Shown here: in pieces, positions 19,816-56,117 of the stretch
How positions within the stretch are numbered: position 1 is the first letter of the stretch
Layout: the number at the start of each line of letters is the position of its first letter
Source of the DNA: Methanothrix thermoacetophila PT
GTDB taxonomy: Archaea > Halobacteriota > Methanosarcinia > Methanotrichales > Methanotrichaceae
DNA: 64,000 nucleotides
Direction: 5' to 3'
Assembly: GCF_000014945.1 (NCBI RefSeq)
Contig: NC_008553.1
Span: 1,798,001 to 1,862,000, forward strand
Program-made: the position numbers and the translations under genes
Notes under the pieces: model-generated
What the model was told of the DNA's origin: nothing
Seen by the model: the letters and a program-made list of their open reading frames with translations, nothing else
Database searches by the model: none

Positions 19816-20222
19816 TCTCATCCCGTGGATGAGGGGGTTTGTCTACCAGCCTGTCAAGGGCTTCAGGGATCCGGGTTTTCTGCGATTTTTGTGGCTGCTT
19901 CGAACCAGCTGCAGGATTGTCTCTCCCGCTGCTGTCCGGTTATTTACGGCATATTATATAGGATAAATCACATCATTATCAATATCAAATTACACAATAT
20001 ATATTATTGCTCCGTTATGCAGATGCAAGCTGATAGGAAGGGTAATAACTGAGCAGCTCGATCTGAGGAAGGAATGTATGCCAGAGTTGGGTGCGTCTCC
20101 AGGAGGAGTGCGGGAAGAGAAGCGTATGAGCGATTCTGTACAGGAGATTTCCATAATCATGATTATATTCTGGTTTTGAGATCCACAGCAGACAACCATC
20201 GTCGCTTCACATCACATAATCA
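19816..20222. promoter_or_regulatory. AT-rich gap before the glycan locus
   Basis: No gene is supported. The segment 19940-20010 is AT rich and holds two TATA-like elements (CATATTATATAGG near 19950 and ACAATATATATTA near 19994), either of which could start a long leader for the flippase gene at 20223. No clear hairpin or repeat was seen. Confidence 0.35.
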
Positions 20223-21686: not shown

Positions 21687-21707
21687 CGTGTCAATGGAGG
21701 TTACGAA

Positions 21708-22493
21708 TTGAAGCCAATTGACTATATCGTACCTACATGGAATTCAGGAACTACTTTAGGTATTACGCTAGAATCCATTAAAAAATATGGTAATCCTAAT
21801 AATATAATAATCGTTGATAGGAACTCCGAAGATAACACACTTGAGATAGCTCGTCGATATGGTTGCAAAATACTGACATCCGAATCGAATTTAGGAACCG
21901 CAAGGATCGAAGGCGCTAAAGCCGCAGAGACAGAATTGATTGGATTTGTTGATTCTGATGTCGAACTAACCGATGGCTGGAGAGAGCTTTTGAGGCATGC
22001 TTGGAGCGGCCGAGAGAGATACAAAGATGTTGGGGTTTTTGGTGCATATTGTGAAGGACCTATTATTAAAGATTCGCCTTTGGTTTTATATGGAAGAAAT
22101 GGTGTGTTCGGCTGCATTATCACATACAGGTCGCTTATATTAGACTGCCCTGAAATGACGAAATATTCCAGCGATGAAGATTTCGCTTATGGGCAGTGTA
22201 TTTTTAAAAAAGGACTTAAATGGTACATATTTCCATTTTTAATGCAGCATCACCATGATCTTACTGGCATATCGGAGTATATTCGAATGAGGTGGTACGG
22301 CGCGGGCTTACGTATTCGTGATGGATTCAAATTGGTAAATGTTCGCCGGATAATTGGTGGAGCAGTTGTTGGCATCCCCATGCACAATCCAAATGCTAGC
22401 TACATGGAAAATTGGCGCATTAGGCTGAATTACTTTTTGGGATACATTATGTATAAAAAATATTATGAACTCAATCGTAGTAAAAATAAATAA
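21708..22493 (+). CDS. Family 2 glycosyltransferase
   Basis: A 261-residue GT-A fold enzyme that would add a sugar from a nucleotide donor to a growing glycan on the cytoplasmic side. It begins DYIVPTWNSGTTLGITLESI, has the nucleotide-binding IIIVDRNSEDNT segment and the metal-binding VDSDVEL (DxD-type) near residue 84. There is no membrane helix. It is AT rich like its neighbours. Its N-terminus closely resembles the relic at 23616-23738, suggesting the two derive from the same kind of gene at this locus. Sugar specificity is unknown. Confidence 0.88.
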   Translation: MKPIDYIVPTWNSGTTLGITLESIKKYGNPNNIIIVDRNSEDNTLEIARRYGCKILTSESNLGTARIEGAKAAETELIGFVDSDVELTDGWRELLRHAWSGRERYKDVGVFGAYCEGPIIKDSPLVLYGRNGVFGCIITYRSLILDCPEMTKYSSDEDFAYGQCIFKKGLKWYIFPFLMQHHHDLTGISEYIRMRWYGAGLRIRDGFKLVNVRRIIGGAVVGIPMHNPNASYMENWRIRLNYFLGYIMYKKYYELNRSKNK

Positions 22494-22505
22494 TATAAAT
22501 GCATT

Positions 22506-23597
22506 TTAATTATGAAAATCTTTTGAATATAACTTTAATATATTATTAACTGCAGCGCTCCACGAAAACCGATCTCTTGCAGTTTTTTTAGCGTTTAGAC
22601 CAATCTCTTCCGCTATCTCTTTATTTCTAAGCAGGCAAATCACTTTTTCGGCAATCTTAGCTTCATCTGGTTCCACAAGAAGGCCATTTTTCCCGTCCTC
22701 TATAGCTTCTGGTATTCCTCCCACTGGAGTAGCTATTATCGGTTTTCCCATGGACATTGCCTCTAATAATGCTATTGGCAACCCTTCCCCCAATGAGATA
22801 TGAGTATAAATATCACTTAGCAACAATGGAACATACGGATTATCCACATCACCTGTGAATATAACAGCGTGTTCAAGACCTTCTTTTTTTGCAAATTCCC
22901 TTAGCTCGGCAGTATATTTGCCTTCACGTGTGACTAAAAGAATAGCGTTTGGGTATACGCATTTAATTTTTTTAAGAGATTTTATTAGATACTTAAGGCC
23001 ATCTGCTTTATATTTTAATGCAGTCAGGCCGAGCGCCAGAAGAATAGGATATTGATTCTTGATGTCAAATTTGCTATTAAATGTAGCTATCTCTTCCTCT
23101 GATGCATCTCTTACATCTATACCTGCGTAAGTTATTACTGTGTTCTTGAACTTTAGACCCCATACGTCCCCAACAGTGGTTTCTAGCTTTTTTGAAACAA
23201 ATGTAACATAGTCACATTTTTCTAAAAGCTTCTGAAGAGCGATTCTTTTTAAAACCGGCAATTTATTATCTTTTTCGGGTTCTGTATGAAATGTATAGAT
23301 CAGCTTACATCTAAAAAGTTTTTTATAAAAATATCCTGCCAGAAGATAATAGTATAATCCGCCATGCGAGTGGATTACATTTGGCTTAAATTTCAATAAT
23401 AAGTAAAATGCTGATAATAACTTAGTGAGAATAAAGTTTCGATTTTTGATTTTATAATTCTCTGGATCCTGTCCCTCCTTAAATGCAACTTTTACATCGA
23501 TGTCTCTTTTCTTGAGCTCCTCCACTAAGCCTTCCACATAGCTTCGTATTCCGCCCGCGCATCCTTTCCAATAAGTAGTAGTTATAAGAACTCTCAT
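22506..23597 (-). CDS. Family 4 glycosyltransferase
   Basis: A 363-residue GT-B enzyme. It starts MRVLITTTYWKGCAGGIRSY with a glycine-rich acceptor loop, has VIHSHGGLYYYLL, and in the C-terminal half the donor-binding region GEGLPIALLEAMSMGKPIIA, continuing PVGGIPEAIEDGKNGLLV, whose EX7E-type motif is that of GT4 retaining transferases. It is very AT rich compared with the flanking transferases and converges on the family 2 gene with 12 nt between them. ATG 23606, three codons upstream, is an alternative start. Activity is a sugar transfer to a surface glycan; the sugar is not known. Confidence 0.88.
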   Translation of the reverse strand: MRVLITTTYWKGCAGGIRSYVEGLVEELKKRDIDVKVAFKEGQDPENYKIKNRNFILTKLLSAFYLLLKFKPNVIHSHGGLYYYLLAGYFYKKLFRCKLIYTFHTEPEKDNKLPVLKRIALQKLLEKCDYVTFVSKKLETTVGDVWGLKFKNTVITYAGIDVRDASEEEIATFNSKFDIKNQYPILLALGLTALKYKADGLKYLIKSLKKIKCVYPNAILLVTREGKYTAELREFAKKEGLEHAVIFTGDVDNPYVPLLLSDIYTHISLGEGLPIALLEAMSMGKPIIATPVGGIPEAIEDGKNGLLVEPDEAKIAEKVICLLRNKEIAEEIGLNAKKTARDRFSWSAAVNNILKLYSKDFHN

Positions 23598-23615
23598 AGT
23601 GCCCATCTCAAATTG

Positions 23616-23738
23616 CTATGCAAGTCGATTTATCATTACTATTTGTTTATGATCTCCGTATATTTTTATTGATTTTATCGCGAGCTCCAGAGTAGCTCCG
23701 GAGTTCCATGTTGGTATTATATAATCGATTCTATCCAT
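23616..23738 (-). pseudogene. Truncated family 2 glycosyltransferase remnant
   Basis: A 40-codon frame on the minus strand begins MDRIDYIIPTWNSGATLELA and continues IKSIKIYGDHKQIVMINRLA before a stop. It matches the first 40 residues of the family 2 transferase at 21708 (DYIVPTWNSGTTLGITLESI then KKYG), with the same spacing, and then ends where the family continues VDRNSEDNT. The start lies 5 nt after the stop of the transferase gene at 23743, so the intact gene was probably the next member of that operon, cut when the AT-rich segment arrived. Confidence 0.75.
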
Positions 23739-23742
23739 ATGA

Positions 23743-24711
23743 TCACCGCCCCTTCTCCGGCAGTTCCTTTAACAGCGTGACTAGTCTGCGTTCCCTTTGA
23801 TCAATCCTGAAACTCCTCTCAATCCGATCTCTGGGGGATTTCTCAGAGACCATTGCCATCCGTATCGCTTCAGCCGTTGCCTTTTCATCGCCATATGGAA
23901 CATAGAAACCTGTATCCCCCACAACCTCAGGAAGCGCCCCTCGATCTGTGACCACGGGAACACATCCGCATGCCATCGCCTCTGCAAGAGCCATACCAAA
24001 CGACTCGACATAGGAGAGCTGACAGTACACCTTTGCTCTTTGATAGCATTCCACGAGCTCATCCCGTGAAACACGTCCTAAGATCTTCACGTTCTCAGGG
24101 CTTTTTGATCTCAGAATATTTAATACATCTCCACGAACTCCAATTATCAAAAATTTAACATTCGGAAGCAAATATGCAGCCTCAACAAAGGTATCCAATC
24201 CCTTCAGCTTGATGACATTTGTTGAACCTGAGGCGACTGTAAGTACCAGATCATCTTTTTCTCCCTTCGGATGGAACTTCTCTGTATCTACGCCGTTGTA
24301 GACGACCTCTAAACGTCTTGGTTTCGTCCTTTTGAGGACTTCCTCTCTGGTGAATTGCGAAACCGCCAGAACCGCATCAGCATTCTCCAATGCCAGATCT
24401 GTGTATTTCCGTTTAATCCATCCCTGCGTATACTGACCATATCCAATATCAGGAAGGAATGCAACATCGTAGCCACCCGCCACCACCACAGACCTTTTCC
24501 CAAATATCCTGGAAAGCATTACACTCAGAAAAGAATGGCCAGCGGCAAACCAGCTGAATACAATATCAGAGCGCGATATGGAAGACGCCATCTCAAAGAT
24601 ATCGCCCGGCTTACTGTACTGCACCCTCTCCACATCGAAATGCCTGGAGAGGATCTCATAATCCTGCTCGACAAATGATGAATAATCGTAATATACGAAT
24701 GCTACTCTCAT
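23743..24711 (-). CDS. Family 4 glycosyltransferase
   Basis: A 322-residue GT-B protein starting MRVAFVYYDYSSFVEQDYEI. Typical GT4 features are KRSVVVAGGYDVAFLPDIGY in the N-terminal domain, VYNGVDTEKFHPKGEKD at the domain junction, and the C-terminal VESFGMALAEAMACGCVPVV followed by TDRGALPEVVGDTGFYV, which binds the nucleotide sugar. Base composition is intermediate. It lies downstream of two more transferase genes on the same strand, with short gaps, as part of a leftward glycan operon that starts at 26907. The sugar and acceptor are not predictable. Confidence 0.88.
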   Translation of the reverse strand: MRVAFVYYDYSSFVEQDYEILSRHFDVERVQYSKPGDIFEMASSISRSDIVFSWFAAGHSFLSVMLSRIFGKRSVVVAGGYDVAFLPDIGYGQYTQGWIKRKYTDLALENADAVLAVSQFTREEVLKRTKPRRLEVVYNGVDTEKFHPKGEKDDLVLTVASGSTNVIKLKGLDTFVEAAYLLPNVKFLIIGVRGDVLNILRSKSPENVKILGRVSRDELVECYQRAKVYCQLSYVESFGMALAEAMACGCVPVVTDRGALPEVVGDTGFYVPYGDEKATAEAIRMAMVSEKSPRDRIERSFRIDQRERRLVTLLKELPEKGR

Positions 24712-40501: not shown

Positions 40502-43500
40502 ATGATTTACAACAGAGTGGGATTTGTGCGCACTGCAATAACAAAAATATTTTTGATGCTTTTGATCATAGTGATCGTAGCTGCAAATAATGTTTCAGCA
40601 CTTACGTTAGACAGTTCCTCTGGTGTATGGACCAGTGTCACTGGCGGAAGTGGTATAACAGGAGTGAATACAAATGAGGTGAGGTGGGGAACACCTGCAG
40701 AAAAGTATAAAAGCGGGCTACGTTTTGATGGAGTCACATCAAGTCAGAATATAGAAACTGGCAAGGACTTTTGTTTAGGTAAGCTCACGCACTTCAATTA
40801 CCCTGTTTATTCTGGAACTGCGGCATCGGGAGCTAAATTAAAGATAACACTTCATTTTTCCAATCCGTCCATCACAGCTGATTTTTATTACGATCTGACA
40901 ATTGATGAGACGCCCAACAGCGGCACATGTGAAAGATGTGCGTATAAACCATGCGAAACACCATGCCCTGACAAAGTGTCCTGGTCAAATACACTCTCAT
41001 CCCAGTCATTTTTCATCAATGGTGAGGAGTATATCGTTCAGATAGCGGGATTTGTAAATCAATGTCCGGGTGGAACACCTGTATCTGATTTTATAACTCA
41101 GGAGAAAAAGAAAAACGAAGCGTATCTTGTTGGCAGGGTTCTTCTAAAAAGACCAGCTATAGGTGTTGTGAAGACAGCATCTCTTGATGGTACATGTCCT
41201 GGCACGGATCCAGTTACTGCTGGTATAGGCGCTACGGTGACCTACTGTTATCAGGTCCAGAACACAGGAGATGTCAAATTAACAGATGTGAGTCTCACGG
41301 ACGACAAGTATGGCACTATAACGCTTGATAAGACGACACTTGAGCCAGGCGAAACAGCAGAAGGTACATCGACACATACGGTCACGCCATCAGATTATCC
41401 GTTGTTGAAGAATATTGCAACAGCGACAGGCAAAACGCCCATAGGATCCACTATTAGTGCCGTAGATGACTGTAAGGTCAATGTTGTCTGCACACCTCTC
41501 ACAGTTTCAGTTAGTCCGACATCGGGCGAGCTGAACTGCAATGTAAACGAGGTCGAGCTCGAAGCAACTGTTTCAGGAGGCAAACCGGATTACTCGTACC
41601 AGTGGTACAAGGACAACAGTCCGATAACAGGAGCGACCGGTTCGAGCTACACAGCGACAGGAGCAGGTAGCTACAAGGTCGTGGTGACCGATGCAAACGG
41701 TTGTACCGGGACGTCGGATGAAGTTCCAGTGACCAGTGTCGGTTCGCCGAGTGTGAGTGTTGGACCGACATCGGGCGAGCTGAACTGCAATGTAAACGAG
41801 GTCGAGCTCGAAGCAACTGTTTCAGGAGGCAAACCGGATTACTCGTACCAGTGGTACAAGGACAACAGTCCGATAACAGGAGCGACCGGTTCGAGCTACA
41901 CAGCGACAGGAGCAGGTAGCTACAAGGTCGTGGTGACCGATGCAAACGGTTGTACCGGGACGTCGGATGAAGTTCCAGTGACCAGTGTCGGTTCGCCGAG
42001 TGTGAGTGTTGGACCGACATCGGGCGAGCTGAACTGCAATGTAAACGAGGTCGAGCTCGAAGCAACTGTTTCAGGAGGCAAACCGGATTACTCGTACCAG
42101 TGGTACAAGGACAACAGTCCGATAACAGGAGCGACCGGTTCGAGCTACACAGCGACAGGAGCAGGTAGCTACAAGGTCGTGGTGACCGATGCAAACGGTT
42201 GTACCGGGACGTCGGATGAAGTTCCAGTGACCAGTGTCGGTTCGCCGAGTGTGAGTGTTGGACCGACATCGGGCGAGCTGAACTGCAATGTAAACGAGGT
42301 CGAGCTCGAAGCAACTGTTTCAGGAGGCAAACCGGATTACTCGTACCAGTGGTACAAGGGAGATTCGCTGATAAATGGAGCAACTGGTTCGAGCTATACA
42401 GCCAGAGAAGCAGGTATCTACAAGGTCGAGGTGACCGATGCAAACGGCTGTACCGGGACGTCGAATGAAGTTACAGTGATCAGAGTCGGTTCGCCGAGTG
42501 TGAGTGTCAGTCCGGCATCGGGCGAATTGAACTGTAATGTAAACAGCATCGAGCTCACAGCAACGGTTACTGGAGGCGAAGAGCCGTACTCGTACCAGTG
42601 GTACAAGGACGACAGTCCGATAACAGGAGCGACCGGTTCGAGCTACACAGCGACAGGAGCAGGTAGCTACAAGGTCGTGGTGACCGATGCAAACGGTTGT
42701 ACCGGGACGTCGGATGAAGTTCCAGTGACCAGTGTCGGTTCGCCGAGTGTGAGTGTTGGACCGACATCGGGCGAGCTGAACTGCAATGTAAACGAGGTCG
42801 AGCTCGAAGCAACTGTTTCAGGAGGCAAACCGGATTACTCGTACCAGTGGTACAAGGGAGATTCGCTGATAAATGGAGCAACTGGTTCGAGCTATACAGC
42901 CAGAGAAGCAGGTATCTACAAGGTCGAGGTGACCGATGCAAACGGCTGTACCGGGACGTCGAATGAAGTTACAGTGATCAGAGTCGGTTCGCCGAGTGTG
43001 AGTGTCAGTCCGGCATCGGGCGAATTGAACTGTAATGTAAACAGCATCGAGCTCACAGCAACGGTTACTGGAGGCGAAGAGCCGTACTCGTACCAGTGGT
43101 ACAAGGACGACAGTCCGATAACAGGAGCGACCGGTTCGAGCTACACAGCGACAGGAGCAGGTAGCTACAAGGTCGTGGTGACCGATGCAAACGGTTGTAC
43201 CGGGACGTCGGATGAAGTTCCAGTGACCAGTGTCGGTTCGCCGAGTGTGAGTGTTGGACCGACATCGGGCGAGCTGAACTGCAATGTAAACGAGGTCGAG
43301 CTCGAAGCAACTGTTTCAGGAGGCAAACCGGATTACTCGTACCAGTGGTACAAGGACGACAGTCCGATAACAGGAGCGACCGGTTCGAGCTACACAGCGA
43401 CAGGAGCAGGTAGCTACAAGGTCGTGGTGACCGATGCAAACGGTTGTACCGGGACGTCGGATGAAGTTCCAGTGACCAGTGTCGGTTCGCCGAGTGTGAG

Positions 43501-46500
43501 TGTTGGACCGACATCGGGCGAGCTGAACTGCAATGTAAACGAGGTCGAGCTCGAAGCAACTGTTTCAGGAGGCAAACCGGATTACTCGTACCAGTGGTAC
43601 AAGGACAACAGTCCGATAACAGGAGCGACCGGTTCGAGCTACACAGCGACAGGAGCAGGTAGCTACAAGGTCGTGGTGACCGATGCAAACGGTTGTACCG
43701 GGACGTCGGATGAAGTTCCAGTGACCAGTGTCGGTTCGCCGAGTGTGAGTGTTGGACCGACATCGGGCGAGCTGAACTGCAATGTAAACGAGGTCGAGCT
43801 CGAAGCAACTGTTTCAGGAGGCAAACCGGATTACTCGTACCAGTGGTACAAGGGAGATTCGCTGATAAATGGAGCAACTGGTTCGAGCTATACAGCCAGA
43901 GAAGCAGGTATCTACAAGGTCGAGGTGACCGATGCAAACGGCTGTACCGGGACGTCGAATGAAGTTACAGTGATCAGAGTCGGTTCGCCGAGTGTGAGTG
44001 TCAGTCCGGCATCGGGCGAATTGAACTGTAATGTAAACAGCATCGAGCTCACAGCAACGGTTACTGGAGGCGAAGAGCCGTACTCGTACCAGTGGTACAA
44101 GGACGACAGTCCGATAACAGGAGCGACCGGTTCGAGCTACACAGCGACAGGAGCAGGTAGCTACAAGGTCGTGGTGACCGATGCAAACGGTTGTACCGCA
44201 GAGTCCAGTGCGACAATAACAGAGGTCGAGTGTATTACTAAGATCATAGTCGACAAGGTTACAGACCCAAGCGGCTCGACTGAGAGCTTCGAGTTCACAG
44301 GCTCCTGGAGTGGAGGCACGACATTCTCTCTGACCGACGGTGCCGATCCTTACGATAGCGGGCAGCTTGAACCAGGCGAGTACACGGTAACCGAGATTGT
44401 GCCTGATGGCTGGGACCTGAGCAGCATAGAAATCGATGGTGATACAGATGGTGGATCCACCTCCACCACGTCAGGCTCCACTGCCACAATCGATCTTGAT
44501 GCAGGCGAGACGATCAGAGTCACGTTCACCAATACCCTCAAGACAGGCGGTCAGGGCAAACTCGACGTCAGCGGATACAAGTTCAACGATCTGAACGGGA
44601 ATGGTAATTGGGATACAGGAGAGCCTGGAATCGAGGGCTGGACGATTTACCTCTCGGACGGCACAACAACGATCTCGACTACTACCGGCTCAGATGGGAG
44701 CTACTCCTTCACAAACCTGCCCGCTGGAAAGTACACGATAACAGAGGAGGAGAGGGCAGGATGGAGCAGAACACTCCCTGCAGATCTCGGAAGCTATGAG
44801 ATCAACTTTGACGGCGAGGAGGACAGGAGCGTAGCGGACCAGAACTTCGGAAATGTTCAGACTGTACAGCCGCAGGCCAAGCTTGCGATAACCTCCACTC
44901 CTCAGGATCCCTGCAGCAATACGCCTGTGGTTGTAACAGTGAGCTGTGAGAACCTGCAGGGCGATCTCTGCGGCAGCATCGCCAGCATGACTCTGTACTA
45001 CGATTCCTCCTCAGTGGAGATGACGAAGGGTTCGAACGGCAGATGGACCGCGACGGTGCCAGGCCAGTCTGCAGGCACCACACTCAGCGTTTACGCAGTG
45101 CCGAAGGACTCCCAGGGCAATTTCATAGAATCGATAGGGACGACCGCGACCGTGGAAATAACCTGGGTGGACTGCGCAATCGATATCGAGAAGACTGCTG
45201 ATAGGGAGACCGTGGAGCCTGGCGACACCATAACATACACTCTCACGGTGAAAAACACCGGCAGCGCGACGATAAATGATGCCACAGTGGTCGACACGCT
45301 CCCGCCAGGCACGCTGTACAAATCCGCGGATCCAGAGCCGTCAGGCGTCAGCGGCAGTGTCGTCACGTGGAACCTGGGGGCTCTCGAGGCGGGCGCATCT
45401 GTGGTCATCACCCTGACCGCGACGGTCGAGAGCGACGTATGCACGCGCCAGAGCTTCACGCCATCAGATGAGCAGAACCAGAAGCGCGGTCTGGCTCCAC
45501 CTGTGACAGGAGAGGAGAGGCTCACCATAATGGCAGCATCTCCCGTCGACCAGGAGCTGATCGATTCTCTATATAGAAATATGACCAGACTGGAGGCGAA
45601 GCTGAACTACGTCAGGAAGTACAGGGACACGTTCGATAAGGTGAACGCCTCTCTGGTCATCAGCAACGTCACTCTGAACGGCTCTGTGTACAAGCTGATG
45701 AACTACACCAACACCACAACCGGAGATGTTCTCACAGAGGCCTACAACTCCTCAGGAGCTCTTGCATGGTCCCTCCTTGTGAGGCCTCAGAAATACGACT
45801 CCCTGCGCACAGAGTACGTCAACGGCAGGGTAGTCTCTGAGAACTACATCACAAGAGAGCCATGGGAGGGCCTCCTCATCGAGTACGACAGGCCATATCC
45901 AGGGTACACGAACCTCACGGTCACTTACTATCCGACGGGCGATACGCTTGTCGTCGTCAGGGATCTCTACGGGAATGTGATCAGCAGGGAGTACAAGAAG
46001 CTGCCAGGAGTGCCGCCTGTGCCCCTGGAGCTCGAGAACTGCGCCACGGTTAAGGGCAGAATAGGCGAGATAGAGGTGAGCGACAGCTCCTGCGCCATAG
46101 TCACTTTGATATGCCCATTACCGGTGCAGGGAAAGCTCACACTGGATAAAAGGCCCTCCGTCGAGGTCGCATCTGTCGGCCAGACGATCACGTACACATA
46201 TACGATCACAAACGGTGGGGAGATAACGATCTCTAACATCTACGTATACGATGATCGGCTTGGCAGGATCAATGCAGATCCCATAACCCTCGACCCGGGA
46301 GATACCACCGAGGTCACCGCGACATATGTTGTAAAAGCCACAGATGAATCTCCGATAAAGAACATCGCAACAGCAAAAGGCGAGGATCCGAATGGCGATC
46401 CTGTGGTCTCGGACCCGGCTGAGGCTGAGGTCATGATCGCTAGTGAGGTCCTCTTCAACAAGACCGCTGAGCCGAAGGTGGTCGAGCCTGGAGACACGAT

Positions 46501-48643
46501 AACGTACACGATAAGGTATCAGAACAGGGGGGGCACATTACACGACGTCCGCATTGTGGATTACTACCCGAACGAGGTTTATTTCATAAGCGCGACCCCT
46601 GCGCCGACGAGCGGGAACAATGTATGGTACATAGGGGATCTCGCTAGTGGCGAATCTGGCGAGATAGTGATACTCGTGGGCGTTGCACAGGAGCTGGGCA
46701 ACATGAGCTTCAGGATGGACCAGAGCGTTAGCGGCTCAGGTTACGTCAACGTTTACAACAACCTCTGCACCACCCCGCCGAGGATAGTGAACAGGGCTGA
46801 GATGGTCTACAGGCTTACTCAGAATGGAGAGAGCACAAAGGTCACTACAGCCGCAGAGGTCCAGCTCGGACCGCCTGCCACATGCGCCAAGATCAAGGAG
46901 CACGGGAGCGGGTCGTACGAGACTGATGATCTTGTGAGATACGAGCGCGGAAACCGCACGATAACATGGAACAAGAGCCTGTCAGCGACGCATTACCCGA
47001 CATCGTTCTCTCTTCCAAGAAACAGAAGCTTGAACTACACGACGCTCTGGGTCGAGAAGCAGAAGGCCAAGAACTACGCGACAGACGCATCATTCAGCGA
47101 GGAGTACACGTATGCCAGGGACATAAAGCGCGATAGCTCCCTCCAGATGGACGAGAACGGCTCCAGGCTCATGATCGATACGGAGTTCACAGGCATGGGT
47201 CATGTTGGAATACTCAAAGCCAGGGAGGGCAACCTGACGAAGAACGCCTTGGACAATGCTGTTTACGAGAGCAGGGAGGACTACGTCGGCAGCTTCAGGT
47301 TGTATCAGAAGGTCGATGAGTACGGCGAGCACCTCCGCTCCGAGAGCGAGGCGAGCGGCACGGGCTTTGCATCTGTGGATAAACGTCTTGGATCTGCCCA
47401 GCGCTCCTACGAGTCTGGCACTGGCAGCTACGAGAGCTCCCAGCTCATGGACACCCTTAGCAGCTACATGCACAAGGAGATCAGCCTCGAACACGCGCCT
47501 GCGAACTACACGTACTCACAGGGCATGGGTGTGAACTACACCGGCAAGTGGTACGAGGGGATGTGGTCAAAGACGGATAAGAGCCTGATCAGCGAGAGCT
47601 TCTCATCGCTTAACACCCTCGAGAAGGAGACGTACGCGAGGGGCCTGAACGAGATGGAGACCGAGGCGGAGTTCTCAGGAAAGGCTGACTTCAGGGTCCT
47701 CTACCAGGATCTGAGCGGCAGGGAGGGAAGAACTGTTGATCTCGTCGATCAGTACATCGGTGATTACAAGGTGAACCGCAAGGTCTCGATAACAGGTGTA
47801 TCCAGATACAGCTACCCGCACATCTCTGTGAGAAAGGAGGGCTCCGTCGACCTGGCGAACAGCACATACGCTGATTACAGGATCATCGTTGAGAACGACG
47901 GCAACGTCAATCTTGGGCCTGTATACATCCTTGACATCTTCCCGCCTGGCACGGAGTACGTGGGATCATCTGCAAGACCTGGTGAACTGACATCAGAGTA
48001 TGCGAACTGGACGCTCCTGCACCTTGGAATAGGCGATACCGCAACGATCTCGCTCACTCTCAACATAACAGAAGAGGTATCGAACCTGGTCAACAGGGTG
48101 ATCGTTTCAGGAGCGCATGACGATGAATGGGTCACGGCCAGAAACTTCTCCTCGATAAAGGTCGACTGGCTCGAGTGCTGTCCGGCGGAGCTCACGGCAA
48201 CTAAGACAGCGGCAGTGCACAACGACACTGTGAGTTACAGGATCTCGCTGAGCAACAGAGCGAACTACACGATGGTCGCGTTCGTGATCGATTACATACC
48301 ATCAGATATGCAGCTGATCAACTACTCGCTCACGCCCTCCCAGATACGAGAGAACAGGATCGAGTGGGCGATACTCGATCTCAGGCCCGGAAAGAGGATC
48401 GATATCGATTACAACATGAGAGCGCTCAGGAGCGGCACGTTCACGAACAGGGCCAGGGTGGAGGCCTACCCGATCGATGGGCCAGGATCGGTCGAGGCAG
48501 ATCTGGCGGCCAGAGCATACGTCGGAGTCGAGATAAAAGAGCGGGAGAGAGAAGGGTGGACAGTGCCGAAGTGCATGGGTCTGAACTGCACCGAGTCGTA
48601 CAGGGACGACTGGATGTCATGCAGCACATGTGCACCGGAGTAG
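40502..48643 (+). CDS. Giant secreted surface protein with tandem Ig-like repeats and DUF11 domains
   Basis: A 2713-residue exported protein. A signal peptide (IFLMLLIIVIVAANNVSA) is followed by a unique domain (30-215), one DUF11 repeat (about 217-325), eleven 83-residue Ig/PKD-type repeats (331 to about 1240) with the core SYQWYKDNSPITGATGSSY, then a SpaA-like domain (about 1245-1345), a SdrD B-like domain (GYKFNDLNGNGNWDTGEPGI near 1360), and at least five more DUF11 domains (ITYTLTVKNTGSATINDATV near 1570; others near 1880, 1985, 2450, 2560), separated by an unknown 350-residue stretch. No C-terminal membrane helix or LPXTG-like motif is seen; the end is cysteine rich (CSTCAPE). The SD GAGGGAGGA lies directly before the ATG. 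It is probably a sheath or adhesion protein. Confidence 0.88.
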   Translation: MIYNRVGFVRTAITKIFLMLLIIVIVAANNVSALTLDSSSGVWTSVTGGSGITGVNTNEVRWGTPAEKYKSGLRFDGVTSSQNIETGKDFCLGKLTHFNYPVYSGTAASGAKLKITLHFSNPSITADFYYDLTIDETPNSGTCERCAYKPCETPCPDKVSWSNTLSSQSFFINGEEYIVQIAGFVNQCPGGTPVSDFITQEKKKNEAYLVGRVLLKRPAIGVVKTASLDGTCPGTDPVTAGIGATVTYCYQVQNTGDVKLTDVSLTDDKYGTITLDKTTLEPGETAEGTSTHTVTPSDYPLLKNIATATGKTPIGSTISAVDDCKVNVVCTPLTVSVSPTSGELNCNVNEVELEATVSGGKPDYSYQWYKDNSPITGATGSSYTATGAGSYKVVVTDANGCTGTSDEVPVTSVGSPSVSVGPTSGELNCNVNEVELEATVSGGKPDYSYQWYKDNSPITGATGSSYTATGAGSYKVVVTDANGCTGTSDEVPVTSVGSPSVSVGPTSGELNCNVNEVELEATVSGGKPDYSYQWYKDNSPITGATGSSYTATGAGSYKVVVTDANGCTGTSDEVPVTSVGSPSVSVGPTSGELNCNVNEVELEATVSGGKPDYSYQWYKGDSLINGATGSSYTAREAGIYKVEVTDANGCTGTSNEVTVIRVGSPSVSVSPASGELNCNVNSIELTATVTGGEEPYSYQWYKDDSPITGATGSSYTATGAGSYKVVVTDANGCTGTSDEVPVTSVGSPSVSVGPTSGELNCNVNEVELEATVSGGKPDYSYQWYKGDSLINGATGSSYTAREAGIYKVEVTDANGCTGTSNEVTVIRVGSPSVSVSPASGELNCNVNSIELTATVTGGEEPYSYQWYKDDSPITGATGSSYTATGAGSYKVVVTDANGCTGTSDEVPVTSVGSPSVSVGPTSGELNCNVNEVELEATVSGGKPDYSYQWYKDDSPITGATGSSYTATGAGSYKVVVTDANGCTGTSDEVPVTSVGSPSVSVGPTSGELNCNVNEVELEATVSGGKPDYSYQWYKDNSPITGATGSSYTATGAGSYKVVVTDANGCTGTSDEVPVTSVGSPSVSVGPTSGELNCNVNEVELEATVSGGKPDYSYQWYKGDSLINGATGSSYTAREAGIYKVEVTDANGCTGTSNEVTVIRVGSPSVSVSPASGELNCNVNSIELTATVTGGEEPYSYQWYKDDSPITGATGSSYTATGAGSYKVVVTDANGCTAESSATITEVECITKIIVDKVTDPSGSTESFEFTGSWSGGTTFSLTDGADPYDSGQLEPGEYTVTEIVPDGWDLSSIEIDGDTDGGSTSTTSGSTATIDLDAGETIRVTFTNTLKTGGQGKLDVSGYKFNDLNGNGNWDTGEPGIEGWTIYLSDGTTTISTTTGSDGSYSFTNLPAGKYTITEEERAGWSRTLPADLGSYEINFDGEEDRSVADQNFGNVQTVQPQAKLAITSTPQDPCSNTPVVVTVSCENLQGDLCGSIASMTLYYDSSSVEMTKGSNGRWTATVPGQSAGTTLSVYAVPKDSQGNFIESIGTTATVEITWVDCAIDIEKTADRETVEPGDTITYTLTVKNTGSATINDATVVDTLPPGTLYKSADPEPSGVSGSVVTWNLGALEAGASVVITLTATVESDVCTRQSFTPSDEQNQKRGLAPPVTGEERLTIMAASPVDQELIDSLYRNMTRLEAKLNYVRKYRDTFDKVNASLVISNVTLNGSVYKLMNYTNTTTGDVLTEAYNSSGALAWSLLVRPQKYDSLRTEYVNGRVVSENYITREPWEGLLIEYDRPYPGYTNLTVTYYPTGDTLVVVRDLYGNVISREYKKLPGVPPVPLELENCATVKGRIGEIEVSDSSCAIVTLICPLPVQGKLTLDKRPSVEVASVGQTITYTYTITNGGEITISNIYVYDDRLGRINADPITLDPGDTTEVTATYVVKATDESPIKNIATAKGEDPNGDPVVSDPAEAEVMIASEVLFNKTAEPKVVEPGDTITYTIRYQNRGGTLHDVRIVDYYPNEVYFISATPAPTSGNNVWYIGDLASGESGEIVILVGVAQELGNMSFRMDQSVSGSGYVNVYNNLCTTPPRIVNRAEMVYRLTQNGESTKVTTAAEVQLGPPATCAKIKEHGSGSYETDDLVRYERGNRTITWNKSLSATHYPTSFSLPRNRSLNYTTLWVEKQKAKNYATDASFSEEYTYARDIKRDSSLQMDENGSRLMIDTEFTGMGHVGILKAREGNLTKNALDNAVYESREDYVGSFRLYQKVDEYGEHLRSESEASGTGFASVDKRLGSAQRSYESGTGSYESSQLMDTLSSYMHKEISLEHAPANYTYSQGMGVNYTGKWYEGMWSKTDKSLISESFSSLNTLEKETYARGLNEMETEAEFSGKADFRVLYQDLSGREGRTVDLVDQYIGDYKVNRKVSITGVSRYSYPHISVRKEGSVDLANSTYADYRIIVENDGNVNLGPVYILDIFPPGTEYVGSSARPGELTSEYANWTLLHLGIGDTATISLTLNITEEVSNLVNRVIVSGAHDDEWVTARNFSSIKVDWLECCPAELTATKTAAVHNDTVSYRISLSNRANYTMVAFVIDYIPSDMQLINYSLTPSQIRENRIEWAILDLRPGKRIDIDYNMRALRSGTFTNRARVEAYPIDGPGSVEADLAARAYVGVEIKEREREGWTVPKCMGLNCTESYRDDWMSCSTCAPE
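41492..44230 (+). repeat. Eleven 249-bp tandem repeats in the giant surface-protein gene
   Basis: The units begin at 41492, 41741, 41990, 42239, 42488, 42737, 42986, 43235, 43484, 43733 and 43982, an exact 249-bp period equal to 83 codons. Three unit types occur: A (DNSPITG or DDSPITG with SGGKPDYSYQWYK), B (GDSLINGATG with AREAGIYKVEV) and C (SPASGELNCNVNSIELTAT). The order is A A A B C B C A A B C. The BC pair appears three times as a 498-bp block. Copies are nearly identical in DNA, so they are kept alike by recombination. The last unit ends differently (TAESSATITEVE). Confidence 0.95.
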
Positions 48644-50708: not shown

Positions 50709-51809
50709 TCAGATGGAGAGCAGAGGAGTGTTCGTCCTCAGCGCACTCTCCGCATCCCTTAGAAGATCTTGCATGCCTTCCATCTGCCGGTATCTCCTAA
50801 CAAGAACCTCTGCGAGGCTACCGTTATCGATGCGCTCTTTGATCAGCGGGAGATATGCCATCTCATCAGGAGACGCGTGCCTTTCCGCCTCTATGTAAAG
50901 CCTCTGGAGCTCGGGTTTCATCTCTGATGTGCCTCTCCTGATGGCGAGATACATCATCTCCCTCAGACTCTCTTCATCATCCTCCAGGGAGATATCGCTT
51001 CGCAGAAGTGCATTTAGGAAAGCGGTCACACCCATATCAGATCTTATGCACTCCTGCTCATCTATGGCTTTGACCTCAAGACATCTTCTTTTAAACCTGA
51101 CGATAATCCCCCTGGAGTTCACCCACTCCCTGCAGAGCAGATCTGCGCCTCTTTCCTGGAGTTTCCTGTATATCACTCTGTTTATTATAACATAATCCCT
51201 GATGCTTCTGATTCTCTCAGGTATCACATCATGGCATATCTCCGGGATCTCCCGCTGGTTCTCCATGTAGAAAAGAAGCCTGTTATCCATGTATCCTGTG
51301 AATCTGCCCTCAACAAACGGGGATGCTGCAGATATCGCTATCAGGTAGGGCAGCAGGGCTCTCAGCCTGTTGAACATCTCCACCAGCATATCGCTTCCGG
51401 CGTATGAGATGTTAATCTGTAGAGCCTGAATGTTCAGCCAGCCGTGCTGTTTTATGTTGAAGAGCCTGTCATAGATGTGGTAGTACTCGGCCTCGTCATG
51501 CTCCCAGAAGGTAGTCTGGTCCAGTGTTAGAAGGGGATGCATCCCCAGCCCGAGGAATCTGTACTCCCCGAAGCAGCTGTAAAGCCTCCTGACTCCACCA
51601 TAAAGCAAAGCCTCCAGCTCCTGAAGGCTCTCAGCCGGTGGCGGAACCAGCTCCAGGACGTGCTTCTGGAGCTCCTTTGAAAGGCGTAGAGCGCCAAAAT
51701 CTATCTCGTGCTCGACCCTCCCACTCAATCTTTTTATGAGCAAATCTGAGATTGGGAGGGGATTGAAGCAGAGGTCGTTTATGGAGTACTCATGCTCTGT
51801 GCCTATCAT
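50709..51809 (-). CDS. GCS2-family carboxylate-amine ligase (glutamate-cysteine-ligase-like)
   Basis: A 366-residue protein of the GCS2 superfamily, which joins a carboxylate (often gamma-glutamyl) to an amine. It starts MIGTEHEYSINDLCF, the active-site GxEHE-type motif, followed by LSKELQKHVLELVPPP, LGLGMHPLLT, and INISYAGSDMLVEMFNRLRA, then LIAISAASPFVEGRFTGYMD, which match the substrate and metal site of GCS2 enzymes. It is the last gene of a compact four-gene operon with a cysteine-cluster protein, a RimK-type ATP-grasp and an RLAN protein. Together they suggest a peptide or gamma-glutamyl product, but the substrate cannot be read from sequence. Confidence 0.82.
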   Translation of the reverse strand: MIGTEHEYSINDLCFNPLPISDLLIKRLSGRVEHEIDFGALRLSKELQKHVLELVPPPAESLQELEALLYGGVRRLYSCFGEYRFLGLGMHPLLTLDQTTFWEHDEAEYYHIYDRLFNIKQHGWLNIQALQINISYAGSDMLVEMFNRLRALLPYLIAISAASPFVEGRFTGYMDNRLLFYMENQREIPEICHDVIPERIRSIRDYVIINRVIYRKLQERGADLLCREWVNSRGIIVRFKRRCLEVKAIDEQECIRSDMGVTAFLNALLRSDISLEDDEESLREMMYLAIRRGTSEMKPELQRLYIEAERHASPDEMAYLPLIKERIDNGSLAEVLVRRYRQMEGMQDLLRDAESALRTNTPLLSI

Positions 51810-52296
51810 ATGAGATCTCCATGACCTTGAACGTCTCAGGCTCCTCTATTTTAAGAACAGCTGCGAGTTCATCCTCTCTCATATTCTCAATCAGATCGAG
51901 GATCTTCTCAACCGCCAGCTTTAGCTGTCTCTCGTACGCCTCTCGATCTCTGAGAAGATAACCTGCGAGGGGGCATATGCTCTCCCTCTTGAGGTAGATC
52001 TCCACCCTTCCGTCCATCATATCGAAGGTGAAGGGACCTGCTGAACACGTCTCAGGCTTGAGATGATGCAGCCTGCACCTTCCATTCTCCAGGAGCACGC
52101 ATGACCCGTCATCCCTCGCCCTGAGCCTCTTGTAGCCAGCGTGTTCGATATCATCAGGGCGTAGACCTGCGGAGATCAGAATCTCCGCACGCTTCTCCGT
52201 AAGAGGCGGCCTTGCATCGATGCAGCAGATGCCACCGCATGAGCTGCAGATGTTGCTGAATACATCAGAATCTACATCAGAATCCACTTCGGTCAC
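51790..52296 (-). CDS. YkgJ-family cysteine-cluster protein
   Basis: A 168-residue protein with the CxxCxxxCC cluster (NICSSCGGICCIDA, Cys17, Cys20, Cys24, Cys25) and later RCRLHHLKPETCSAGPFTFD and ESICPLAGYLL, supplying the other cysteines of the metal or Fe-S site of this family. The GTG at 52296 is 1 nt after the stop of the ATP-grasp gene; longer frames run backwards through that gene. The 3' end overlaps the GCS2 gene by 20 nt. The family has no settled activity; the context suggests it is a maturation, redox or methylation-related partner of the two ligases. Confidence 0.85.
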   Translation of the reverse strand: MTEVDSDVDSDVFSNICSSCGGICCIDARPPLTEKRAEILISAGLRPDDIEHAGYKRLRARDDGSCVLLENGRCRLHHLKPETCSAGPFTFDMMDGRVEIYLKRESICPLAGYLLRDREAYERQLKLAVEKILDLIENMREDELAAVLKIEEPETFKVMEISYDRHRA

Positions 52297-52297
52297 C

Positions 52298-53305
52298 TCA
52301 TCTCTCGAAGTCGATCCTGTATGCCAGAGGTTCCTCGGATCCGAGCACGTTCTGGGTGGATGGGTCGAACCTCGCATCTCTCATGTAGCTCTGCAGCCCT
52401 GATGGCATGTAGCTGAGCGTGTCCGCATACTGATCGCCGTTTATGAGGTATGATATTATCCTCCTGTATATCTCAGGGTAGCAGACATCCTCACCGCCAT
52501 CGAGCGATGGGTTGTCGTTGACCTCTATGACGTAGAGACGGCCGTTGCTCTCCTTGATGTCCACTCCGTACAGCCCCTTGCCTATGGCCTTTCCCGCCTC
52601 AATCCCCAGATCTATGATCTCCGACGGCACATCCTCCGGCGGAACGCTCTCCACCCCACAGTAAACGAGATGACCGTTCACAGATGCCTGGATCTTGAAG
52701 GTCTGGGCTGGGATGACATATCTGCATGCGTAGAGGAACTCTCCATTGAGCACGCCAATCCTCCAGTCGAAGCTGCTCGGCACGTACTCCTGCACCACGA
52801 TCCAGTCCGAGAGCCTGAGGAACCGCTTCGCTATCCTCATGAACTCCTGGACGTTCGACGCCTTCTCGACCCTTGCCGAGAACGATGTCGAAGGTTCCTT
52901 TAACACCAGCGGCGTGCCGAGCCTCTCGAAGAGCGCCCTGGCGTACTCCGGCGCTATCTCCCTCTTGCTCGGGAAGACCGTCCTGGGTATGGGCAGCTTC
53001 TTCTTCATCAGGTGGAGGTACATGTTGATCTTGTCGGAGCATATCTGGATCGATGCTGGATCGTCTATTACAGGGATCCCGTAAAGGCTCGCGATTCTAG
53101 ATGCGACATACGTCGCATTCATCGGATCCGTGTTGGCTCTTATGAACAGAGCATCGAGCTTCGGAATCCTGTTTATGTCCACCGGGAATATGAACTCCGC
53201 AGTGTGTCCCATGCTCTCGGCAGCATCTCTGCACTTTATGAGCGCGGTGAGCTGCTCTGAGCTGCTAAGCGTTTGTCTGTTGACGAATATTCCCAACCTG
53301 CTCAA
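52298..53305 (-). CDS. RimK-type ATP-grasp ligase
   Basis: A 335-residue ATP-grasp enzyme: MSRLGIFVNRQTLSSSEQLT at the start, DALFIRANTDPMNATYVASR and IDDPASIQICSDKINMYLHL of the RimK group, then GTPLVLKEPSTSFSARVEKA, VVQEYVPSSFDWRIGVLNGE, and GVDIKESNGRLYVIEVNDNP with the metal-binding Glu and Asn. RimK-type enzymes add amino acids to a peptide, protein or small molecule. Its start overlaps the stop of the RLAN gene in a 4-nt ATGA arrangement. The two proteins correspond to domains found fused in some bacterial RimK-like proteins. Confidence 0.87.
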   Translation of the reverse strand: MSRLGIFVNRQTLSSSEQLTALIKCRDAAESMGHTAEFIFPVDINRIPKLDALFIRANTDPMNATYVASRIASLYGIPVIDDPASIQICSDKINMYLHLMKKKLPIPRTVFPSKREIAPEYARALFERLGTPLVLKEPSTSFSARVEKASNVQEFMRIAKRFLRLSDWIVVQEYVPSSFDWRIGVLNGEFLYACRYVIPAQTFKIQASVNGHLVYCGVESVPPEDVPSEIIDLGIEAGKAIGKGLYGVDIKESNGRLYVIEVNDNPSLDGGEDVCYPEIYRRIISYLINGDQYADTLSYMPSGLQSYMRDARFDPSTQNVLGSEEPLAYRIDFER

Positions 53306-53946
53306 CTGCTCACCCTCTTCTCAAGGATGCTCTTCATCAGATCCCTCTCCTTTTCGGAGAGCTGGGAGTACATCACAGGTGCAAGTGATGACAAACGATA
53401 TCCTCCAAGATCTCTGACGAGCACGAGGCTCACCAGTGGTATGTTGAAGACCGCATAGATCTTCTCAGCCAGCGTCTCTATCTCATCAGAGCAGTCGATC
53501 GTTCTTCCGAAGATGGAGGTGTACACTGCCACCTCTGCCTCATCGCTTATCTTCTGATAGCAGAACGGGTACTTGCCGTAGTTTGTCACGTGCTTTATCG
53601 CCTTCTTCGCGCTTGTGAAATCCTTCACGACAAAATGTTCAGAGGGTGTGGAGAAGTAGTTCAGCCCGTAGACTATCGCTGGAAGAGTTATGTATGCGTA
53701 AGAGACGACCCACTCGCATACAGGTATCCCTGCCATTCTTGCTTTCTCGAGACATATCGGCACAATGTAAGCATCGAGAACCGCACTGCTGCTTGGAACT
53801 GTCCTGATTCCCTCGAACTCGTTCTGCACTATCGTGTAGTATGGCTCTGTCTTGTAGAAGTAGCTCTCGTTGATTATGTATACTGTCCCATTTTTATTTA
53901 ATGTATACATAATATTCTTCTTTGGAATAGTGTGACGTTTGTTCAT
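53302..53946 (-). CDS. RLAN-domain protein (RimK-like ATP-grasp N-terminal)
   Basis: A 214-residue protein of the RLAN type, normally the N-terminal companion of RimK-like ATP-grasp enzymes: YIINESYFYKTEPYYTIVQN, then EFEGIRTVPSSSAVLDAYIV, VYGLNYFSTPSEHFVVKDFT, and VAVYTSIFGRTID. It is first in the operon and overlaps the ATP-grasp gene by 4 nt. It most likely binds the acceptor or tethers the substrate for that ligase. GTG 53958 and ATG 53910 are other possible starts. Family placement rests on the Tyr/Asn-rich opening and on gene context. Confidence 0.75.
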   Translation of the reverse strand: MNKRHTIPKKNIMYTLNKNGTVYIINESYFYKTEPYYTIVQNEFEGIRTVPSSSAVLDAYIVPICLEKARMAGIPVCEWVVSYAYITLPAIVYGLNYFSTPSEHFVVKDFTSAKKAIKHVTNYGKYPFCYQKISDEAEVAVYTSIFGRTIDCSDEIETLAEKIYAVFNIPLVSLVLVRDLGGYRLSSLAPVMYSQLSEKERDLMKSILEKRVSS

Positions 53947-54107: not shown

Positions 54108-56117
54108 TTACCCTGATGCATTCTCAGAACTTCTGAGTTCTCTAACATCGAGAAGCTCGATCATACTTCTTATATCTGTTGCCGGAAAGCTGCATGTGTA
54201 TCTGCTGCAGACATACGCGGTGGCCTTTTTATCCACAGGTCTCAGAGAAGATGCCCACTCCGGAGGTCTATCACCTGATACCACGACCTTTCTCGGTGCG
54301 TAGACGGACCAGAGCGCGCGCAGCATAGTTCTTGTATTATCCGCATCGCCCACGATTGCGATCTCATGCGACGGGCCGAGCGCGAGATCGAGAGCGATCA
54401 GGAGTCCCACCTGCGCAGGCAGGGAGGCCATGCTGATGTGCCTGAGGCTCATCGAAGCGATCTCCTCCAGATCCGGCCTGCCGAGGATTTTCCCGAGCAG
54501 GAGCATGTCCATGGTGGCCATCGAATAGCCTGATGGGATCGCACCATCGCGGATCTCCTTTCTTTGCAGGATGATGTCACTCTGCTCCTTCATCGTGTAA
54601 TAGAACCCTCCATCCGGATCTGAGAAATGGGAGACCATCTCATCACACAAGATCTCAGCTCTCTCCAGATACCTTCCGTCGAACCCGGCCTGGTAAAGCT
54701 CTATCAGCCCAAAGATGAGGAAGGCGTAATCGTCCAGAATCGACACCCTGCTTCCCTTATAGGAATGCATCAGCATGCCGTCTCTGTGCATGCTCGACAG
54801 CACGAAATCCGCTGCCTCGGATGCTATGCGGAGCCATCTCTCATCTCCCAGAACCTGGGCACCTCTGGAGAATGCCGCTATCATCAATCCATTCCAGTCC
54901 GCAAGCACCTTCTCATCTCTGAAGGGTTTTCTCCTCAGAGATCTTGCATCCAGAAGTTTTCTTCTTATGGGCTCGCTGGTGTGCTTGAACTCGCTCAATT
55001 CGCCTTTCAGCGAGATCCTGAGGACGTTCTTTCCATCGCTCCCGCCGATTGGCTCGAGGACGAACACCTCCAGCGCTTTTTTCAGATCATCACCAAGAGC
55101 ATCTCGAAGCTGATCCATTGTCCAGAGATAATATCCTCCCTCGATGTTATCGCTCTCTGCGTCCAGCGCTGAGCAGAAAGCGCCATCGGGTGATCTCAGA
55201 TCCTCAGCAACGAAACCGAGTATCTCATCTGCCACAATCGCGTAATCCCTCTTTCCTGTGGCCTGATACGCCTCAAGATAAACCACAGACATCAGCGCCT
55301 GGTCGTAGAGCATCTTCTCGAAGTGGGGCACGCCCCAGCTCGAATCAGTTGAGTACCTGTGGAAACCATATGCGAGCTGGTCGTATATGCCGCCGCATCG
55401 CATCTCCCTGAGAGTCAGCTCCACCATCTCCAGAGCTTTCATCTCCCCTGTTCTGTGCCAGTACCTGAGCAGGAACAGCAGATTCTGTGCCAGGGGGAAC
55501 TTCGGGGCTCTCCCAAACCCTCCGCTGGTCCAGTCGAAGATCCCAGAAAGCTCGAGGTACGCTCTGCTCAGAGTACTCTCATCCGCATTCGACGCCTGGA
55601 GATGCGTATCAGCCTTTCGCATGGCGTTCAGCACCTTGAATCCGAGAGATGTGAGCTCGGATCTCCGATTTCTCCAGAGCTCCTCCACCAGCGGTATGAG
55701 CTCCCTCAGCCCCATCATACCGAGCCGCCCATCCTTCGGGATATATGTGGCTGCAAAAAAGGGAATGCCATCCGGGGACATTATGATCGTCAGAGGCCAT
55801 CCGCCCCTGCCGGTGATGATCTGGCAGGCCTCCATGTAAATGGCGTCGATATCCGGCCTCTCCTCCCTGTCCACCTTCACGCATACAAATGCCCTGTTCA
55901 GCATCTCAGCGATCCTCTCATCCTCAAAAGACTCCCTTGCCATCACGTGGCACCAGTGGCACGTGGAGTACCCTATGGAGAGAAATATCGGCCTGTCCTC
56001 AGCTCTGGCACGCTCGAAGGCCTCAGGAGACCAGGGATACCAGTCCACGGGGTTGTATGCATGCTGGAGGAGGTAAGGACTTGACTCTCCAGCAAGACGG
56101 TTGGGCTTGCGATCCAT
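54108..56117 (-). CDS. DUF255/thioredoxin-domain protein (YyaL/SSP411 family)
   Basis: A 669-residue protein. The first 170 residues are a thioredoxin-like domain with [20 protein letters not shown] and the redox pair CHWCHVMA (Cys53, Cys56); the rest is an (alpha/alpha)6 barrel like N-acylglucosamine 2-epimerase or cellobiose epimerase ([70 protein letters not shown]). The family is widespread, and its biochemical role is unsettled. Length is a little above average. It is transcribed alone, opposite to the zinc-ribbon/pcm pair. Confidence 0.92.

What the first reader, a model, noticed from the sequence alone, without database searches (positions are those of the whole stretch)
50709..53946. 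Four-gene ligase operon: RLAN, RimK-type ATP-grasp, YkgJ cysteine-cluster protein, GCS2
Four genes are packed with 4-nt or small overlaps and no terminators, so they act together. Two are ATP-dependent amide-bond-forming ligases of different folds, one is the RLAN partner of RimK-like enzymes, and one is a cysteine-cluster protein. Such a set predicts a short peptide-like or gamma-glutamyl metabolite, or a protein tag, whose identity is not known to me. RimK/GCS2 neighbourhoods have been described as uncharacterised amidoligase systems; the exact four-member form with YkgJ is less familiar. In a methanogen a cofactor, compatible solute or metal-related thiol are possible products.
Basis: partly seen in the sequence, partly recalled or inferred. 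Interest (0 to 1): 0.8.

Follow-up and report, generated by a model that had tools for sequence, protein, structure and literature searches.

The report
Archaeal four-gene amide ligase module
A methanogen carries a conserved set of four genes (a working ATP-grasp ligase, its degenerate catalytically dead-looking twin, a glutamate-cysteine-ligase-like enzyme and a cysteine-cluster metal protein) that are gained and lost together across archaea and probably build an unknown short amide-linked compound.

Summary
In detail: RLAN, RimK-type ATP-grasp, YkgJ-type and GCS2 genes sit back to back at 50709-53946 (- strand). It is not a chance neighbourhood. In 295 genomes of the phylum, the YkgJ subfamily occurs in 33, all of which also hold RLAN and the GCS2 subfamily. 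Within the window's family, two genera lack all four genes. Linkage survives at least four gene orders, in methanogens, Archaeoglobaceae and Bathyarchaeota. Bacteria have the core as one fused protein followed by GCS2, with C39-like and FGase hydrolases instead of YkgJ. Where GCS2 is missing, a GNAT acyltransferase usually sits there instead. The tree needs at least six GCS2/GNAT swaps, and both partners occur as triple fusions with the core. New here: the 'RLAN partner' is itself a degenerate ATP-grasp fold (best matches LysX, ArgX, RimK) without the catalytic lysines and metal ligands. So the first ligase is probably an active/inactive ATP-grasp pair. Both ligases keep their key residues. 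Best reading: a two-step amide-ligase pathway in which the ATP-grasp pair makes one bond, GCS2 (or GNAT) caps an amine, and YkgJ does an archaea-specific step. Product and substrates are unknown; a protein tag is not excluded. A new variant of known RLAN-RimK/GCS2 systems.

The parts
53302..53946 (-). RLAN-type protein (214 aa from ATG at 53946): degenerate ATP-grasp fold, predicted non-catalytic partner of the ATP-grasp
   Evidence: Pfam RLAN 35 bits; AF2 model pLDDT 89.7, pTM 0.86; Foldseek best PDB matches LysX/ArgX/RimK E 1e-9, VIA Z 12.9 over 184 of 214 residues; catalytic residues not kept
52298..53305 (-). RimK-type ATP-grasp ligase (335 aa, TTG start), predicted active; C-terminal extension found only in Methanotrichaceae
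   Evidence: Pfam RimK; K92, K136, Q172, R182, D249, E261, N263 kept in 100-101 of 101 homologs; bacterial fused homolog models like ArgX/LysX/RimK, Z 27-29
51790..52296 (-). YkgJ-type CxxCxxCC cysteine-cluster protein (168 aa from GTG at 52296; longest ORF starts at 52377), putative Zn/Fe binder
   Evidence: Pfam CxxCxxCC 39 bits; 8 invariant Cys (C44, 47, 51, 52, 93, 101, 111, 135 in long-ORF numbering) plus a conserved EEPET motif near the C-terminus; subfamily found only in genomes with RLAN and GCS2
50709..51809 (-). GCS2-fold carboxylate-amine ligase (366 aa), predicted active, own subfamily
   Evidence: Pfam GCS2 156 bits; E7, E46, E53, H91, N126, R238 invariant, E5 nearly so; far below the NCBIfam cut-offs of YbdK/GshA/EgtA; related to plant GCL and YbdK structures

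Best explanation
The four genes form one amide-bond-forming module. Step 1 (inferred): the ATP-grasp enzyme, working as a heteromer with the degenerate ATP-grasp RLAN (which probably helps bind substrate or holds the dimer together), uses ATP to activate a carboxylate and couples it to an amine, as RimK, LysX and ArgX do. Step 2 (inferred): the GCS2 enzyme uses ATP to put a second acyl group, most likely a gamma-glutamyl, on an amine of the same compound. That GNAT N-acyltransferases replace GCS2 in other lineages suggests that this step is the capping of an amine. Step 3 (speculative): the YkgJ-type protein, through its eight-cysteine metal site, carries out or supports an archaea-specific modification, or takes over the role that the C39-like and FGase hydrolases have in bacterial loci. 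The most likely product is a small capped dipeptide-like or gamma-glutamyl metabolite. Shown: conserved unit, intact ligase residues, RLAN fold and lost catalytic residues, partner exchange. Not shown: any activity, substrate or product.
For: Co-presence: 33 of 33 genomes with the YkgJ subfamily also have RLAN and GCS2 (Fisher p 1e-41, not corrected for relatedness). Within Methanotrichaceae, 11 genomes of two genera lack RLAN, ATP-grasp and GCS2 altogether and show no YkgJ hit above 28 bits, against 142-219 bits in genomes that have the set. Linkage in four orders in several lineages. Fusions RLAN-ATPgrasp-GCS2 and GNAT-RLAN-ATPgrasp. GCS2 and GNAT nearly exclusive among the loci (1 locus with both, 56 GCS2 only, 25 GNAT only; p 5e-11), at least 6 changes on the tree. 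RLAN model matches ATP-grasp enzymes over its whole length; RLAN and ATP-grasp profiles align at E 7.7e-5 against E 0.59 for RLAN/GCS2. Catalytic residues kept in ATP-grasp and lost in RLAN. RLAN and ATP-grasp distances correlate at r 0.97, GCS2 and YkgJ at 0.83.
Against: No substrate is indicated by sequence: the ATP-grasp has its own NDNP...ED motif unlike the corresponding part of LysX/RimK. Methanocella-like genomes keep RLAN and ATP-grasp without GCS2 and with no GNAT found nearby, so step 2 is not obligatory next to step 1. YkgJ is missing from bacterial loci and from a few archaeal GCS2 loci (L055, L068, L146). Hydrolases beside the bacterial ligases would also fit a reversible protein tag.
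Confidence: 0.5

Rival explanations
1. Protein modification: the RLAN/ATP-grasp pair adds amino acids to a protein or carrier (as RimK does to ribosomal protein S6) and GCS2 or GNAT caps or branches the added residue; C39-like and FGase hydrolases remove it in bacteria.
For: Fold closest to RimK and LysX/ArgX, which act on protein C-termini; hydrolases of two types beside bacterial ligases.
Against: No target protein gene is consistently linked; no precursor fits between the overlapping genes; GCS2 relatives of known function act on small molecules (established knowledge).
Confidence: 0.25
2. Amine handling: GCS2 gamma-glutamylates (or GNAT acylates) an external or toxic amine, the ATP-grasp adds a further residue, and the compound is then degraded or exported, as in gamma-glutamylated intermediates of amine catabolism.
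For: Exchange of GCS2 and GNAT as amine-capping enzymes and the presence of hydrolases in bacteria.
Against: No oxidase, dehydrogenase or transporter is kept in the neighbourhood.
Confidence: 0.12
3. The YkgJ-type protein is the substrate: a metal-binding carrier protein whose conserved acidic C-terminal region is charged by the ligases, by analogy to the zinc protein LysW served by LysX and ArgX.
For: The ATP-grasp resembles ArgX/LysX in complex with LysW; conserved EEPET motif near the YkgJ C-terminus.
Against: The C-terminal residues are variable in length and sequence; bacterial and GNAT-type loci have no YkgJ.
Confidence: 0.08
4. Chance neighbours with unrelated functions.
For: None found beyond the fact that the genes are small and tightly packed.
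Against: Joint absence in two sister genera, linkage in several gene orders, fusions.
Confidence: 0.01

Closest known systems
RLAN-RimK / GCS2 or GNAT-C39 amidoligase neighbourhoods of bacteria (from memory: Iyer et al. 2009, Mol Biosyst 5:1636, and Pfam PF14401; the paper is not held)
   Same: RLAN, RimK-type ATP-grasp and GCS2 side by side; homologous core; same GCS2 subfamily
   Different: Here RLAN and ATP-grasp are separate proteins, no C39/FGase hydrolase is present, and a YkgJ-type protein is a constant fourth member
LysX/ArgX and RimK ligases
   Same: ATP-grasp fold with all catalytic residues; RLAN also has this fold
   Different: Below the NCBIfam cut-offs of all named RimK-family enzymes; different substrate-side motif; a degenerate paralog as constant neighbour
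GCS2 enzymes (plant GCL, YbdK, EgtA)
   Same: Fold and key acidic residues
   Different: Separate subfamily, far below cut-offs; no glutathione pathway expected in a methanogen (established knowledge)
NAGGN synthesis (GNAT plus ATP-grasp making an N-capped dipeptide; from memory)
   Same: Logic of an ATP-grasp peptide ligase combined with an amine-capping enzyme
   Different: Only an analogy; homology of the systems was not tested

Membership tests
RLAN-RimK/GCS2 amidoligase systems | RLAN domain next to or fused with a RimK-type ATP-grasp | tested here: met
   Pfam hits in the window; adjacent in all loci that hold both
RLAN-RimK/GCS2 amidoligase systems | GCS2 ligase in the same neighbourhood | tested here: met
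RLAN-RimK/GCS2 amidoligase systems | C39-like or FGase hydrolase beside the ligases (frequent in bacteria; treated as a variant trait, not as defining) | tested here: not met
   Present in 23 bacterial GCS2 loci, in none of 28 archaeal loci with YkgJ and GCS2
ATP-grasp fold (for RLAN) | Overall fold | tested here: met
   Foldseek E 1e-9, probability 1.0; VIA Z 12.9, rmsd 4.3, 184 aligned
ATP-grasp enzyme (for RLAN) | ATP-binding lysines and Mg ligands | tested here: not met
   Lys at the K92 position in 6 of 62, at K136 in 0 of 31 aligned; metal-ligand positions are V/L/P in the window (metal positions mapped by secondary structure, approximate)
RimK / LysX / MptN / CofF (named enzymes) | Score above the NCBIfam cut-off | tested here: not met
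   77.8 bits or less against cut-offs of 143 or more
Glutamate-cysteine ligase / YbdK / EgtA | Score above the NCBIfam cut-off | tested here: not met
   49.7 bits or less against 176 or more
YkgJ / CxxCxxCC family PF03692 | Cysteine-cluster signature above the gathering score | tested here: met
   39.1 bits against 23; 8 invariant Cys
YkgJ / CxxCxxCC family PF03692 | Binding of Zn or Fe | not testable with these tools
   Predicted from cysteines only
Anti-phage defence systems | Match to a PADLOC model | tested here: not met
   No match at E 0.01

The most novel reading that the evidence does not exclude
The module makes an undescribed archaeal gamma-glutamyl-type or otherwise capped peptide metabolite (a thiol, metal ligand or solute) through an ATP-grasp enzyme that works only as a heteromer with a degenerate ATP-grasp twin, with the YkgJ-type protein as a new metal-dependent tailoring enzyme.
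Probability: 0.3. Interest if true: 0.85.

Novelty: new variant of a known kind. Interest (0 to 1): 0.62.

Why it matters
RLAN-RimK systems occur in many bacterial and archaeal phyla without a known product. The results give three handles. (1) RLAN is a degenerate ATP-grasp, so co-expression of both subunits is probably needed for activity. (2) GCS2 and GNAT replace each other, which points to amine capping. (3) Sister genera of one methanogen family with and without the whole set form a natural comparison for finding the product by metabolomics. The YkgJ protein is tied to one pathway here, a rare lead on a widespread cysteine-cluster family of unknown function.

Tried and rejected
Chance clustering: rejected. 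Loss of ligase active sites: rejected. A precursor peptide gene inside the operon: none fits between overlapping genes. Upstream DUF255 gene and downstream LPG_synthase_TM gene as members: DUF255 is near only in Methanotrichaceae and LPG is in no other locus. Defence system: no PADLOC match. YkgJ as LysW-like carrier: C-terminus not conserved. Literature: no PMC paper names RLAN/PF14401 or a degenerate ATP-grasp of this kind; none links YkgJ to ligases; Iyer et al. 2009 is not held, so whether it mentions YkgJ is unknown. Deoxyhypusine synthase beside some Bathyarchaeota loci was taken as local and not followed.

Full report
What is there. The window lies in a complete 1,879,471-base genome, the size that I remember for Methanothrix (Methanosaeta) thermoacetophila PT; its nearest named relatives in the tree are Methanothrix. 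Four genes run on the - strand from 53946 to 50709: RLAN, RimK-type ATP-grasp, YkgJ-type (CxxCxxCC) and GCS2, each above its Pfam cut-off. They overlap or touch: TTGA overlap, 1-nt gap with a GTG start for YkgJ, 20-nt overlap. The ATP-grasp and GCS2 proteins match no named NCBIfam enzyme at its cut-off.

Is it a unit? Homologs were collected in whole genomes and in 80 named loci. The order RLAN, ATP-grasp, YkgJ, GCS2 is kept in Methanotrichaceae and Methanomicrobiales (Methanoregula, Methanolinea). Archaeoglobaceae have RLAN, ATP-grasp, GCS2, YkgJ in a row or a convergent GCS2-YkgJ pair; Bathyarchaeota have a divergent GCS2-YkgJ pair. In four Archaeoglobaceae genomes GCS2 lies on another contig but is still present. 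In the 50 genomes of the order, RLAN, ATP-grasp and GCS2 are all absent, and the YkgJ subfamily has no strong hit, in two genera (11 genomes); elsewhere the set is present save for gaps in fragmented assemblies. In 295 genomes of the phylum RLAN is found in 40, the GCS2 subfamily in 36 at E 1e-40 or better, the YkgJ subfamily in 33; every YkgJ genome has both others. These p-values ignore relatedness, but the pattern recurs in several lineages.

The bacterial form. Bacteria mostly have RLAN and ATP-grasp fused. In 23 bacterial loci GCS2 comes with a C39-like peptidase, an FGase (N-formylglutamate amidohydrolase family), or both. A Gemmatimonadetes contig fuses RLAN, ATP-grasp and GCS2 in one 940-aa protein. 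From memory, these neighbourhoods belong to amidoligase systems described by Iyer et al. in 2009; that paper is not held here.

Partner exchange. Where GCS2 is absent, a GNAT acyltransferase usually stands beside the core, sometimes fused to a C39-like domain or to RLAN-ATP-grasp itself. One locus has both, 56 only GCS2, 25 only GNAT (p 5e-11), and the ATP-grasp tree needs at least six changes between them. The core therefore accepts either of two unrelated acylating enzymes, which suggests that the GCS2 step is the capping of an amine. Methanocella-like genomes have neither near the core.

RLAN is a degenerate ATP-grasp. The window's RLAN protein was modelled with an alignment of 30 sequences (pLDDT 89.7, pTM 0.86). 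Its best PDB matches are LysX/ArgX and RimK (Foldseek E 1e-9, probability 1.0; VIA Z 12.9, rmsd 4.3, 184 of 214 residues); the viral library returns ATP-grasp proteins as well. Profile comparison aligns RLAN with the neighbouring ATP-grasp at E 7.7e-5 in one comparison; the control against GCS2 gives 0.59. In that register the two ATP-binding lysines are not kept in RLAN, and by secondary-structure position the metal ligands are V, L and P in the window, while the ATP-grasp keeps all of them in 100 or 101 of 101 homologs. The fused bacterial protein, modelled separately, shows the same order of elements in its RLAN part. RLAN and ATP-grasp distances correlate at r 0.97. The inference is a catalytic/non-catalytic ATP-grasp pair, split in archaea and fused in bacteria. 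That they form a heteromer is inferred, not shown.

YkgJ. The subfamily has eight invariant cysteines and a conserved EEPET motif near a variable C-terminus and no PDB relative. It tracks GCS2 more closely (r 0.83) than the core (r 0.61-0.66). Its role is the weakest part of the explanation: a metal-dependent tailoring or supporting protein, or the archaeal counterpart of the bacterial hydrolases. YkgJ and the hydrolases never occur together at GCS2 loci, but this is confounded with domain of life.

Conclusion. The gene set is a real, conserved, co-inherited module, an archaeal variant of the RLAN-RimK/GCS2 systems, with two intact ligases and one degenerate one. A small capped peptide-like product is the best guess (0.5); a protein tag is the main rival (0.25). 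Nothing here identifies the substrate.

Noticed in passing
window 40502-48643 (+): 2713-aa surface-type protein with many near-identical Ig/PKD-like tandem repeats that carry conserved cysteines.
   Followed up: no
window 40895-40963 (-): ARAGORN calls a 69-nt tRNA-Glu (TTC) antisense inside the 2713-aa ORF; probably a false positive.
   Followed up: no
window 20200-24700: Low-GC stretch (0.39-0.43) coding for a flippase-like protein and glycosyltransferase-like proteins (read from the sequences), perhaps an acquired surface-polysaccharide cluster.
   Followed up: partly
window 54108-56117 (-): DUF255/thioredoxin-domain gene directly upstream of the module, kept there in Methanotrichaceae but not in other lineages.
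   Followed up: partly
L072, L073, L074, L077, L082, downstream of the ATP-grasp: Genes of a deoxyhypusine-synthase cluster lie next to the ATP-grasp in several Bathyarchaeota loci (Pfam match for L072).
   Followed up: no
L131-L134: Methanocella-like genomes carry RLAN and ATP-grasp without GCS2, YkgJ or a detected GNAT nearby; their partner is unknown.
   Followed up: partly
window 52298-52440 (C-terminus of the ATP-grasp): C-terminal extension of about 45 residues found only in Methanotrichaceae ATP-grasp proteins, mostly ending in a Y-x-I-D-F-like motif.
   Followed up: no
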